A stretch of DNA of 64,000 nucleotides from Clostridiales bacterium (lineage in GTDB: Bacteria; Bacillota; Clostridia; Saccharofermentanales; Saccharofermentanaceae): positions 1-64,000 of the forward strand of contig JAFWQC010000019.1 of the NCBI GenBank assembly GCA_017509245.1, in the 5' to 3' direction. Positions 34,207-56,607 of the stretch are shown here, in pieces (within the stretch, counting starts at the first letter, position 1; every line of letters starts with the position of its first letter). The position numbers and the translations under genes are program-made. The notes beneath the pieces were generated by a model. That model was not told the DNA's origin and did no database searches. It saw nothing but the letters and a program-made list of their open reading frames with translations.

Positions 34207-35715
34207 ATGCGAAGGAAGATCAAAAAACAATTAGCTGTGCTGCTCATCCTTGTGATGGCAGTTTTCTGTTTCACTGGCTGTATCAGATACCGTACGACAA
34301 TGACCGTTAAGGGCAATGGTACGACCGACGTCTCATTCCTGTTTGCGTTCGAGGCGGACAGCTTTAGTGAGATCGCGGACAATCTCAACGAGATTACTTC
34401 TGAGTTCGAGAAAGACGGCTGGGTAATTGAACCATACAGCGAAGATAATTACATCGGATATATAGTCACATTAAGAGACGTCAAGCTCACAGATCTTGAA
34501 GAAAAACTCAATAATTCCAACCCGATGAGCGAGCTTGGTCTCGGAGGCTTCCACCTGACGATAGACGGAACTTATTATACGATCTACTGGGACTCAAATG
34601 TTGATACCGAGATCGAGGACCTTGGCGGTCTGGACACGCTCGCCGAACATGACGGCTTCGTGGAATTTGTTCTGGTGCTTCCAGTTGAGCCTTCCTATTA
34701 CAGTCTGCCTTCAGACGTATCGGAGGACGGCAAGACGATTACCTGGGACATGCTCCACCACCCTGACATAGATGTAGGATTCCGCCTTGTAAACACACCT
34801 TCATTCCGCACCACAATTGACGTCAAGAGCAACGGAACTGCCGACTTATCGATAGTATATGCATGCGGTGAGGACGAATATGAAGATCTTCATGCTCAAT
34901 ACGAGTTTATGAAAGAAGACTTTGATGATGATGACTGGTCAGTCAGTGATTACGACGAGGACGGCTTCATCGGTTGCGAATTCACGATCGAGGATGTGGA
35001 ACTCGACAAGGTCGAGAAGAAAATGAACGATGATTTCTTGGAGTATTTTGGATTTGAGTCTTTTGAACTGAACAAGAAGGGATTGAACTATACGATCGAC
35101 TGGGATACCTCAGACGTAAAGGATGATGTCCTGAACGGCCGTGAATATGAAGATGATGAATACGAAGGATTCATGGAAGTCGTAGTCAATCTTCCCGGCA
35201 AGGCAAAGAACAACAACGCTACTGATGTTTCCAAGGACGGCAAGACACTTACATGGGATCTCATGGAAGAAGATACTGTCGAACTGTCATTTGCTGCTTC
35301 AAATACCATATTGATCGTTGCCATTATCGGCGGTGTATGTCTTGCGCTTATCGCAGCAGGCGTGGTCATACTCATAATAGTCCTCAGCAAAAAGAAAAAG
35401 AGCAAGAAAGCAGCAGCTCCTGCAGAAGCACAGCCCGCTGCACCCGTAAACGCACAGCCTTCACCGGCTGAACCCGCACCTGTTAATGATTATTCGAAAT
35501 ACATGCCGCCGGCAGATGAAGCTCCTGTGGCAGCTCCTGCTGTGGTATCTGCTGCAGAACCGGCTGCGGCTCCGGTCTCAGCGCCTGTGGAAGCGCCCGC
35601 AGCACCTGCCCCCGAAGCTCCGAAAGCAGCTTTGGTCTGTCCCAACTGCGGCTATAAACCGGCCGACGGGGAGGTTTTCAAGTTCTGCCCTGAGTGTGGC
35701 TCGAAGGTAGAATAA
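34207..35715 (+). CDS. Two-repeat LppM-like lipoprotein with membrane span and C-terminal zinc ribbon
   Basis: 502 aa. Signal peptide and lipobox FTGC (lipid Cys about 24). Two homologous repeats follow: about 28-200 (TMTVKGNGTTDVSFLF, VSEDGKTITWDM) and 200-350 (TIDVKSNGTADLSIVY, VSKDGKTLTWDL), which resemble LppM/DUF3153 folds. A membrane span comes next (ILIVAIIGGVCLALIAAGVV) with a KKKKSKK stop-transfer, then an Ala/Pro linker, then a zinc ribbon (CPNCGYKPADGEVFKFCPEC). So both ends are anchored: repeats outside, ribbon inside. A signalling or stress-sensing role is possible but unsupported. ATG 34207 follows AGGGGGAGG. Confidence 0.78.
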   Translation: MRRKIKKQLAVLLILVMAVFCFTGCIRYRTTMTVKGNGTTDVSFLFAFEADSFSEIADNLNEITSEFEKDGWVIEPYSEDNYIGYIVTLRDVKLTDLEEKLNNSNPMSELGLGGFHLTIDGTYYTIYWDSNVDTEIEDLGGLDTLAEHDGFVEFVLVLPVEPSYYSLPSDVSEDGKTITWDMLHHPDIDVGFRLVNTPSFRTTIDVKSNGTADLSIVYACGEDEYEDLHAQYEFMKEDFDDDDWSVSDYDEDGFIGCEFTIEDVELDKVEKKMNDDFLEYFGFESFELNKKGLNYTIDWDTSDVKDDVLNGREYEDDEYEGFMEVVVNLPGKAKNNNATDVSKDGKTLTWDLMEEDTVELSFAASNTILIVAIIGGVCLALIAAGVVILIIVLSKKKKSKKAAAPAEAQPAAPVNAQPSPAEPAPVNDYSKYMPPADEAPVAAPAVVSAAEPAAAPVSAPVEAPAAPAPEAPKAALVCPNCGYKPADGEVFKFCPECGSKVE

Positions 35716-35732
35716 GATACACACAAAAGCTC

Positions 35733-35770
35733 AAGGTGTCCCGCTTTACGCGGGGCACTTTTTATTTTGG
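35733..35770 (+). terminator. Rho-independent terminator after the zinc-ribbon lipoprotein
   Basis: AAGGTGTCCCGC pairs with GCGGGGCACTTT (two wobbles) around TTTAC, followed by TTATTTT. The DNA just after it (TTTTGGTGCCCGAAAATA) resembles that after the tuf terminator (TTTTGGCGTGCTCGAAAATA). Confidence 0.85.
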
Positions 35771-35815
35771 TGCCCGAAAATAGTGTTCTCAAAATGTATA
35801 GTTTCTTGTCGGTTG

Positions 35816-35908
35816 TTTGCAGGGTTTTGTATGCTCTCTTGTTGGTTATCAAACATAACTGATGACAATTTGCAGGTTTGATGCAGGTTTTGTCTGTATA
35901 TTTGCAGG
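35816..35908. repeat. Phased TGCAGG repeats in a non-coding region
   Basis: TTTGCAGG occurs at 35816-35823, 35869-35876 and 35901-35908, with GATGCAGG at 35880-35887. Start-to-start distances are 53, 11 and 21 bp, close to multiples of a helical turn. TTGTCGG also occurs twice nearby. Part of a 468-bp stretch (35716-36183) with no gene. Confidence 0.5.
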
Positions 35909-35942
35909 CTATTAAAGTCAATTTTGTCGGTATCTTATTTCA

Positions 35943-35960
35943 TATGTTTCCGGAAACATA
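35943..35960. promoter_or_regulatory. Perfect 18-bp palindrome
   Basis: TATGTTTCCGGAAACATA is fully self-complementary with no loop, so it looks more like a dimeric protein site than a hairpin. It lies 45 bp before the candidate RNA. A small hairpin, GCATC-TGAC-GATGC (35969-35982), separates the two. Confidence 0.5.
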
Positions 35961-36005
35961 CGGAATCAGCATCTGACGATGCCTACTTCTACATGAACCG
36001 CCAAT

Positions 36006-36141
36006 GACCCGCAACCTGCTTAAACACCAAACACAGATCAGGCAAAGCAGTCAAGGACTTAAAGCATTCGTGAGAATGTGCCGCAAGGCATCCTTGACGG
36101 CGTGAGACCGATCTGTAAAACAAGCCTGGCAGGTTGCGGTC
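36006..36141 (+). ncRNA. Candidate structured RNA, unknown family
   Basis: Nested helices on the plus strand: P1 GACC(C)GCAACCTGC (36006-36019) with GCAGGTTGCGGTC (36129-36141), 13 bp with one bulged C; P2 ACAGATC (36033-36039) with GATCTGT (36110-36116); P3 GTCAAGGA (36050-36057) with TCCTTGAC (36091-36098). P3 encloses two hairpins, GCATTC-GTGA-GAATGT (36064-36079) and GCC-GCAA-GGC (36080-36089), both with GNRA tetraloops; on the minus strand they would not be GNRA, which fixes the strand. AGGC (36040-36043) could pair with GCCT (36124-36127) across P2 as a pseudoknot. I do not recognise the family; raiA-type, 6S-like and other large bacterial RNAs should be tested. No clear promoter or terminator was seen. 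Confidence 0.6.
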
Positions 36142-36183
36142 CCTTGTATCCCGCATTAAATACATAGAGCTATTTCGGTAAAA

Positions 36184-37074
36184 TCACTGTTCTTTTTTGC
36201 GCAGGCTCAGCACAACTATTGCCGCAAAAACAAGAAGTATGCCCGCTATTGCAACAGGGCCTACAGTCTCTCCCATTACGAAGAAACCGAAAAGTGTTGC
36301 AGCAGCAGGTTCGACCGTTGCAAGTACGGCTGCTTTGCCCGCTGTAGTCCTGTTAAGTCCCAAGGTGTAGAGAAGGAAAGGTATTACCGCAGTCACTACT
36401 GAGGTTAAGAGTACGAATCCGAACAGCGAGAGTTTGTTCTCGGCAGAAGAGATCTTATTTACGAGATCGGCAGGATTGGCAACAAAAATAGAACCGAAGC
36501 CCGCGATCAGGAATGTGTAACAGGTAACTGTAAATGTCGAATATTTCTTAAGTGCGAATGTTCCGAAAATGCTGTAAAGACCATAACCCAAACCTGAACC
36601 GAGTCCAACGAGAACACCGAAGACAGTAACCTTGCCGCCGAATCCCGACACAAGGACACAGCCTGCGAAAGCCAGAACGAGAGCTATTATTTTCTGCAAA
36701 GTTATCTTTTCCTTAAGGAAGATTATTGCGAGCACCATGACCCAGATAGGTGATGTATAAAGAAGGATGGCTGCTGTGGACATGGTCATTAAGCGAATCG
36801 CAGTAAAGTAGCAGCAGGTGAAAAAAAGGATGCTGACAAGGCCTAATGCAAGGAATAACGGTATGTCTTTTAAGCTGATCTTAAAGCCTTTGGGATCCTT
36901 TATGAGGAGTATTACGGCAAAGAGAATTCCTGCCATTGTAAGTCTTAAGCAGGCGACCTGGATCGATGTAAATCCGAGGTCGTTTAAGTGGCGCACGAAA
37001 ATCCCCATGCTGCCCCAGAATAATCCCGCAATGATTATCAGTATGTTTCCTGTTATGCTTTTCGAGCTCTCCAT
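36184..37074 (-). CDS. EamA/DMT-family transporter
   Basis: 296 aa with ten predicted membrane spans in two EamA repeats (IIAGLFWGSMGIFVRHL at the start; VLVGLGSGLGYGLYSIFG for the second). The C-terminus is basic (SLRKKEQ). The family exports amino acids, nucleobases or other metabolites; substrate unknown. No ribosome binding site precedes ATG 37074; TATAAT (37088-37083) lies only 8 nt upstream, which would give a leaderless or nearly leaderless mRNA. Its 3' end abuts the candidate structured RNA on the other strand. Confidence 0.88.
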   Translation of the reverse strand: MESSKSITGNILIIIAGLFWGSMGIFVRHLNDLGFTSIQVACLRLTMAGILFAVILLIKDPKGFKISLKDIPLFLALGLVSILFFTCCYFTAIRLMTMSTAAILLYTSPIWVMVLAIIFLKEKITLQKIIALVLAFAGCVLVSGFGGKVTVFGVLVGLGSGLGYGLYSIFGTFALKKYSTFTVTCYTFLIAGFGSIFVANPADLVNKISSAENKLSLFGFVLLTSVVTAVIPFLLYTLGLNRTTAGKAAVLATVEPAAATLFGFFVMGETVGPVAIAGILLVFAAIVVLSLRKKEQ

Positions 37075-53983: not shown

Positions 53984-54292
53984 GTATCTTAAAATCGGGA
54001 AAATCTTGATTTTAAGATACTTTGGAGCCTTCCCCGTATCTTAAAATGGCGAAAATTCTGAATTTAAGATATTTTCGCGCCTTGCTGGCCCCGCCCGATA
54101 TCATAAAATGCGAAAAAACAAGCAATTTGTTGCATTGAAGAGCCTCGCCTGTATCATAAAATCGCGAAAATTCGGCTTTTATGATATTTTCGAGCTCGCG
54201 CGTATCACAAAATGGCAAAAAACAAGCAATTTGTTGCATTGAAGCCCCCTTCCGGTATCACAAAACCTCGAAAATTAAGGATTTTATGACAC
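53984..54292. repeat. Palindromic repeat array, cluster 1 (six units)
   Basis: Units at 53984-54020 (GTATCTTAAAATC with GATTTTAAGATAC, 13 bp, perfect), 54036-54072, 54097-54140, 54151-54187 (TATCATAAAA with TTTTATGATA), 54202-54244 and 54255-54292. Loops are often CGCGAAAATTC-like. Stem sequences differ between units (TATCTTAAAA, TATCATAAAA, TATCACAAAA) and are mostly matched by their partner arm. Units 3 and 5 lack that partner arm and instead share a 28-bp tail (54113-54140, 54217-54244). The region 53867-54481 has no gene. Confidence 0.75.
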
Positions 54293-56362: not shown

Positions 56363-56414
56363 AATTTTTCTAAATGATTTATATACTACATCTTCGGTGT
56401 TTTTGGGGGAAAAT

Positions 56415-56607
56415 GTATCCCAAATTAGGTTTTTTATGGATTTGGGATGTTTTTCCCCGCGTTCATATCATAAAACGCGAACATTCAAGGCATTTATGAT
56501 ATTTTTTCCCGCGTTCGTATCATAAAACGCGAATATTCGAGGCATTCGCGATATTTTAGAACCCCGTTCGTATCATAAAAGTCCGATTTTTTAGGAATTT
56601 GTGATAC
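56415..56607. repeat. Palindromic repeat array, cluster 2 (four units)
   Basis: Units: ATCCCAAAT/ATTTGGGAT (56417-56448); ATATCATAAA/TTTATGATAT (56465-56502); 56518-56552, where the outer arms are mismatched but GCGAAT/ATTCGC pair instead; and GTATCATAAA/TTTGTGATAC (56570-56607, one wobble). Same family as cluster 1 on the other side of the sigma operon. The half-unit TTTATGATAT recurs at 56699-56708, overlapping the -10 box of the metY promoter. Confidence 0.75.

What the first reader, a model, noticed from the sequence alone, without database searches (positions are those of the whole stretch)
36006..36141. Unassigned structured RNA with two GNRA tetraloops and a possible pseudoknot
A 468-bp gene-free stretch contains a 136-nt segment with three nested helices (13, 7 and 8 bp), the innermost enclosing two GNRA-capped hairpins (GTGA and GCAA). 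AGGC at 36040-36043 can pair with GCCT at 36124-36127 across P2. The GNRA loops exist only on the plus strand. I do not recognise the family, and no adjacent gene explains it as a simple leader, as the next gene (EamA) is on the opposite strand. It may be a free-standing regulatory RNA.
Basis: partly seen in the sequence, partly recalled or inferred. Interest (0 to 1): 0.8.

Follow-up and report, generated by a model that had tools for sequence, protein, structure and literature searches.

The report
Palindromic mobile-DNA end beside nuclease family
The folded stretch is real, but it is the hairpin-shaped end of a small repeated DNA element scattered through rumen bacteria, whose relatives sit beside an uncharacterised DNA-cutting enzyme gene; it is probably not a lone regulatory RNA.

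Summary
The fold at 36006-36141 is real (RNA z -6.5, DNA z -6.2). It has no Rfam match and covaries strongly (18 copies, 95.8% of cells paired, 0/500 shuffles). The segment is the right end of a ~370-bp repeat (about 35772-36141) with about 10 copies in its own genome. Relatives occur in 24 of 85 genomes of the genus (Saccharofermentans, by contig matching). In genomes G076 and G085 all 11 copies scored sit next to a gene of an unnamed ~250-aa PD-(D/E)XK-type endonuclease; three times two inverted copies bracket the gene (15 of 55 copies within 500 bp, P ~1e-20; own genome 0 of 10). A second nuclease, in G028, is bracketed by an unrelated nested palindrome with ~13 further copies in G028 and none in three other genomes. 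Helix deviations show no G-U excess over A-C (26:21, against 62:5 in RNase P of the same genus), so selection looks DNA-level. Best reading: a REP/BIME-like palindrome system paired with a PD-(D/E)XK nuclease instead of a Y1 transposase. Nuclease-driven movement is inferred; no exact empty site or target duplication was found, and a guide-like RNA role is not excluded.

The parts
35772..36141 (+). whole dispersed element (about 370 bp); left end TGCCCGAAAATAG..., right end ...GGTTGCGG
   Evidence: eight copies in the own genome align over this stretch and diverge outside both edges
35803..35935 (+). array of TTTG[CT][ACT]GG-like motifs (TTGTCGG / TTTGCAGG); the left-end motif CGGA..TAATTTCTTG[TC][ACT]GG recurs in other species
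   Evidence: sequence alignment; left-end motif found near further copies in other genomes
35934..35969 (.). palindrome centred on TATGTTTCCGGAAACATA inside the element
   Evidence: the repeat finder I6, conserved in own-genome copies
36006..36141 (+). T-shaped nested hairpin (the finding): right end of the element, matches covariance model R1 at 143 bits
36009..36139 (+). P1 arms 36009-36019 / 36129-36139
   Evidence: 4 pairs with compensatory change
36033..36116 (+). P2 arms 36033-36041 / 36108-36116
36047..36101 (+). P3 arms 36047-36057 / 36091-36101 (two blocks)
   Evidence: inner pairs GC/CG and CG/AU/GC exchanged
36064..36079 (+). P4 hairpin, loop GNNA, invariant G.U (G.T) at its base
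36080..36089 (+). P5 hairpin, 3-4 nt loop
35733..35761 (+). terminator-like hairpin of the upstream gene; the element lies just after it (context, not part of the element)

Best explanation
The segment is the right-hand terminal structure of a ~370-bp non-autonomous, dispersed palindromic element (REP/BIME- or MITE-like) of Saccharofermentans-type rumen bacteria. Its T-shaped hairpin (outer stem, two small arms at the tip) is kept at the DNA level. In related genomes the same hairpin, in inverted pairs or singly, flanks genes of an undescribed PD-(D/E)XK endonuclease family. I infer that the enzyme recognises and cuts at or near the extruded hairpin and so lets repair or replication copy the element elsewhere, and that solo copies such as this one spread in trans or are relics. 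Shown here: repetition, sharp edges, covariation, adjacency to nuclease genes, a PD-(D/E)XK-like predicted fold, no G-U preference, and a second nuclease/palindrome pair with its own dispersed copies. Inferred: cutting by this enzyme, cruciform or single-strand recognition, and the copying step.
For: About 10 copies in the own genome, sharp edges, and 24 of 85 genus genomes with hits. Inverted pairs, 3' ends outward, bracket a ~245-aa ORF in L181, L182 and L183. Copies within 500 bp of a nuclease domain: 15 of 55, P ~7e-21; 9 of 9 in G076 and 2 of 2 in G085. Nuclease: AlphaFold pLDDT 94. VIA-align Z: Bax1 8.8 (98 residues, 2.9 A), homing endonuclease I-Bth0305I 8.1 (95 of 98 residues, 3.0 A), TnsA 7.5, Vsr 6.7. 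Invariant S131, E134, D164, G182 and near-invariant E179. Palindrome scores flanking 41 nuclease genes against ~190-200 control genes: P ~9e-12. The G028 nuclease is flanked by an unrelated palindrome with ~13 solo copies in G028 and none in G000, G076 or G061. GU:AC 26:21 against 62:5 in RNase P; 10:8 in the G028 palindrome. An outer helix P0 covaries with copy-specific sequences (60% Watson-Crick against a permutation maximum of 49%). Y1 transposase is absent from G076, G061, G107, G085 and G005, which carry copies.
Against: No own-genome copy lies next to a nuclease gene by the 500-bp test (0 of 10), and three of the five own nuclease genes carry an in-frame stop. The same hairpin sits beside at least three nuclease subfamilies with under 20% identity to L183, so it is not strictly cognate with one enzyme. 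No exact empty site or target duplication was found. One G.U pair (base of P4) is invariant in 54 of 54 copies and conservation is strand-specific, which an RNA or a single-strand-specific reading would also give. The nuclease lacks the usual lysine just after its second acidic residue.
Confidence: 0.6

Rival explanations
1. Palindromes moved by some other enzyme: the hairpins are spread by a transposase or recombinase in trans, and the nuclease genes are passengers or homing parasites that settle in or beside such palindromes.
For: One hairpin type goes with several distant nuclease subfamilies. Many copies form mosaics with a second palindrome type without a nuclease. An IS110-type transposase lies next to one copy in L181.
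Against: Y1/RAYT transposases are absent from several copy-rich genomes. The nuclease is the one gene inside the inverted pairs. The G028 palindrome is confined to the genome that holds its nuclease, among four tested.
Confidence: 0.2
2. Guide- or scaffold-RNA model: the hairpin is transcribed outward from the element end and serves the nuclease as an RNA partner, comparable in layout to OMEGA systems (TnpB/IscB with RNA at the element end).
For: Hairpins lie 7-170 bp after nuclease stop codons on the same strand in L196, L188, L185 and L154, 3' end outward. Unpaired stretches and the P4-base G.U are strongly conserved. The N-terminal domain has an alpha-beta-beta-beta-alpha order and weak, non-significant Foldseek matches to dsRNA-binding domains.
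Against: No G-U tolerance. Most copies are far from any nuclease. Other nuclease families carry unrelated palindromes. No promoter-like site on the + strand in 35650-36250.
Confidence: 0.12
3. Free-standing regulatory RNA gene family, multi-copy.
For: Stable covarying fold, strand-specific conservation, conserved upstream region.
Against: GU:AC ratio 1.2:1 against 12:1 in RNase P RNA. Scattered positions and mosaic junctions with other palindromes. Copy number from 0 to about 10 per genome within one genus.
Confidence: 0.08

Closest known systems
REP/BIME palindromes with RAYT (TnpA-REP) genes (PMC2817692, PMC8266576)
   Same: Dispersed intergenic palindromes, mosaic arrangements, an enzyme gene flanked by two palindromes in inverted orientation, genome-specific palindrome families
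   Different: The enzyme is a PD-(D/E)XK-type nuclease, not a Y1 (HUH) transposase; the palindromes are 105-145 nt, nested or T-shaped, not 20-40 bp REPs
EDxHD homing endonucleases such as I-Bth0305I (PMC3943268)
   Same: Nuclease domain fold: Z 8.1 over 95 of the 98 residues; small free-standing gene with an extra domain
   Different: Here the gene is bracketed by palindromes with many gene-less copies; no intron, intein or phage gene context was seen
Prokaryotic MITEs (PMC10969869)
   Same: Short, non-coding, multi-copy, intergenic, related to longer coding elements
   Different: Ends are asymmetric in the window element (motif array left, T-hairpin right); no target duplication found
OMEGA (TnpB/IscB) and HEARO element-end RNAs
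   Same: Structured segment at the element end next to a nuclease gene, 3' end outward (comparison from general knowledge)
   Different: No Rfam match to any family; nuclease fold is PD-(D/E)XK-like; pair statistics look like DNA

Membership tests
REP/RAYT system | palindromes dispersed in many intergenic copies | tested here: met
   about 10 copies in own genome, ~15 of the G028 type
REP/RAYT system | enzyme gene flanked by two such palindromes in inverted orientation | tested here: met
   L181, L182, L183
REP/RAYT system | enzyme is a Y1 tyrosine transposase | tested here: not met
   flanked gene is PD-(D/E)XK-like; Y1_Tnp absent from G076, G061, G107, G085, G005
PD-(D/E)XK nuclease superfamily | core fold | tested here: met
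   pLDDT 94 model, Z 8.8-6.7 to Bax1, I-Bth0305I, TnsA, Vsr; these Z values are close to what unrelated models can reach, but the top rows are one superfamily
PD-(D/E)XK nuclease superfamily | acidic residues plus lysine of the motif | tested here: inconclusive
   E134, D164, E179 conserved; canonical lysine position is not lysine
EDxHD homing endonuclease | sequence membership or homing activity | tested here: inconclusive
   structural similarity only; no Pfam or NCBIfam match above cut-off
Structured regulatory RNA (Rfam-type) | match to a known family | tested here: not met
   no hit at gathering threshold, only chance hits at E up to 10
Structured regulatory RNA (Rfam-type) | covarying helices | tested here: met
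Structured regulatory RNA (Rfam-type) | G-U pairs tolerated in helices over A-C | tested here: not met
   26:21 against 62:5 in RNase P
Structured regulatory RNA (Rfam-type) | transcription | not testable with these tools
   no RNA data
MITE | target site duplication | tested here: inconclusive
   none obvious in flanks of the G028 loci and 32 R1 copies
OMEGA/HEARO | TnpB/IscB-type nuclease and matching RNA family | tested here: not met
   nuclease fold differs, no Rfam match

The most novel reading that the evidence does not exclude
A class of bacterial mobile DNA in which a small PD-(D/E)XK nuclease, with no transposase, spreads T-shaped DNA palindromes by acting on the extruded hairpin or on its transcript, producing REP-like repeat families independently of Y1 transposases.
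Probability: 0.4. Interest if true: 0.85.

Novelty: new variant of a known kind. Interest (0 to 1): 0.62.

Why it matters
The mobiliser known for dispersed bacterial palindromes of the REP kind is the Y1 RAYT transposase. A palindrome/nuclease pairing, with the nuclease family in 84 of 85 sampled genomes of one genus, would be a second, independent route to such repeats. It would also show that a fold-and-covary signal in intergenic DNA can be a mobile-DNA hairpin rather than an RNA, and gives a cheap test (G-U against A-C deviations) to tell the two apart.

Tried and rejected
Known RNA family: no Rfam match. Pseudoknot and GNRA conservation: rejected. Phage or plasmid origin: no DNA match and no protein match beyond one weak plasmid fragment. 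RAYT as mobiliser: not required. Empty site: EamA synteny gave one short intergenic region without the element (L300), too diverged for exact junctions, and in L299/L303 other palindromes at the same place; in G027 against G092/G107 synteny breaks within 30 bp of two copies. Raw folding energy of nuclease flanks was a poor measure (P 0.02 to 0.15) and was replaced by an inverted-repeat score, so that P value is from a second choice of measure. N-terminal domain identity: dsRBD-like strand order, but no significant match (best VIA Z 6.1 to A100 of SSV1, 46 residues). Profile search in viral contigs could not be run. Literature: no paper linking PD-(D/E)XK nucleases to dispersed palindromes in the searches made.

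Full report
What is in the window. The intergenic stretch 35716-36183 holds a strongly folding segment at 36006-36141 (MFE -58 kcal/mol, z -6.47; DNA parameters z -6.15). It has no Rfam match. Its three nested helices and two tip hairpins are as described. The proposed pseudoknot pairs in only 14, 4, 6 and 6 of 18 homologues, and neither loop is consistently GNRA.

It is a repeat. blastn in the own genome finds about ten copies on different contigs. Eight align from ~35772 to ~36141 and diverge sharply at both edges, giving a ~370-bp unit: left end, an array of TTTG[CT][ACT]GG-like motifs, a TTTCCGGAAA palindrome, and the T-shaped hairpin. The element follows the terminator-like hairpin of the upstream gene. 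A covariance model from 18 copies shows 95.8% of cells paired, 33 double changes, and 0 of 500 shuffles as good. It finds hits in 24 of 85 genomes of the genus, up to about ten per genome, and weak hits in six genomes of a sister genus. Contig lengths shared between (79,961 = JAIKVV010000002.1; 123,858 = JAGCSR010000043.1; 73,624 = SVIZ01000012.1) point to Saccharofermentans and unnamed rumen Clostridia MAGs; this is an inference.

The nuclease. In G076 and G085, inverted pairs of the hairpin about 0.9 kb apart, 3' ends outward, bracket a single ORF of 241-249 aa. The ORF has no Pfam or NCBIfam family and weak PHROG matches to Holliday junction resolvases and endonucleases. Homologues occur in 84 of 85 genus genomes and in four genera of the family, rarely beyond. 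Forty members share S131, E134, D164, G182 and near-invariant E179. The model (pLDDT 94) has a PD-(D/E)XK-like core whose best VIA matches are Bax1, I-Bth0305I, TnsA and Vsr, plus an N-terminal alpha-beta-beta-beta-alpha domain without a significant match. Of 55 non-redundant hairpins, 15 lie within 500 bp of this nuclease domain (chance 0.6% each, P ~7e-21): 9 of 9 in G076, 2 of 2 in G085, 0 of 10 in the own genome. The chance rate assumes eight nuclease genes per 2.5 Mb and independent copies.

It generalises. Nuclease genes not linked to this hairpin often have other nested palindromes beside them. The inverted-repeat score of their 350-nt flanks exceeds that of ~190-200 control genes, P ~9e-12. 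In G028 the nuclease is flanked on both sides by a 105-nt palindrome unrelated in sequence, with ~13 further copies dispersed in that genome and none in G000, G076 or G061. Own-genome nuclease genes on C113 and C34 are flanked by a second palindrome type (TAGCACCTGC...GCAGGTGCTA), which also joins the window type in mosaics in other species.

RNA or DNA. In RNA helices, G-U replaces Watson-Crick pairs far more often than A-C does. RNase P RNA of the same genus shows 62 G-U to 5 A-C; the hairpin shows 26 to 21 (also 19 to 20 on the model alignment apart from one fixed pair), and the G028 palindrome 10 to 8. This fits a DNA palindrome. Two observations pull the other way: the G.U at the base of P4 is invariant (54 of 54), and conservation is strand-specific; both would also fit recognition of one DNA strand. 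Beyond P1, many copies have a further outer helix across a ~10-nt one-sided bulge, with copy-specific sequences that still pair (60% Watson-Crick, permutation maximum 49%); the window copy has largely lost it.

How it probably works. The layout matches REP/RAYT systems, in which a RAYT gene flanked by two inverted REPs is proposed to mobilise solo REPs (PMC2817692), but Y1 transposases are absent from several copy-rich genomes and the flanked enzyme is a PD-(D/E)XK-like nuclease. I infer that the nuclease acts on the hairpin ends and that gene-less copies such as the window's move in trans or are relics. Cutting, recognition of the folded strand and the copying step are not shown. No empty site with exact junctions and no target duplication was found. 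A guide-RNA role for the hairpin remains possible.

Limits. Genomes are draft MAGs (own genome 79% complete). Copies are not independent, and the G-U test uses alignments partly fitted to the structure. VIA Z values of 7-9 are near the background for unmatched models.

Noticed in passing
window 53985-54292: Cluster of nested palindromes built from TATCTTAAAAT and TATCATAAAAT ... CGCGAA motifs, the same design as the nuclease-linked palindromes, between two genes.
   Followed up: no
window 56407-56560: GGGAAAATGTATCCCAAAT / ATTTGGGATGTTTTTCCCC palindrome followed by TATCATAAAACGCGAA repeats; its motif resembles the TTTGGGATACATTTTT repeats beside the own-genome nuclease on C34 (L234).
   Followed up: partly
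G000:C52 (L018:2864-3008): Hybrid hairpin: 5' half of the GCACCTGC palindrome type, 3' half of the window type, about 220 bp from the 3' end of an intact nuclease gene.
   Followed up: partly
L181:1-466: IS110-type transposase (DEDD_Tnp_IS110) fragment at a contig end next to a hairpin-flanked nuclease element; some IS110 elements are known to target palindromes.
   Followed up: no
L190:2064-2206 and L190:11712-11856 (G027): Synteny with G092 and G107 breaks within 30 bp of both element copies, with several extra genes on the other side of the first.
   Followed up: partly
G000:C72:55969-56298: A single Y1 (RAYT-like) transposase in the own genome, shared with G064, which has no copies of the hairpin.
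   Followed up: no
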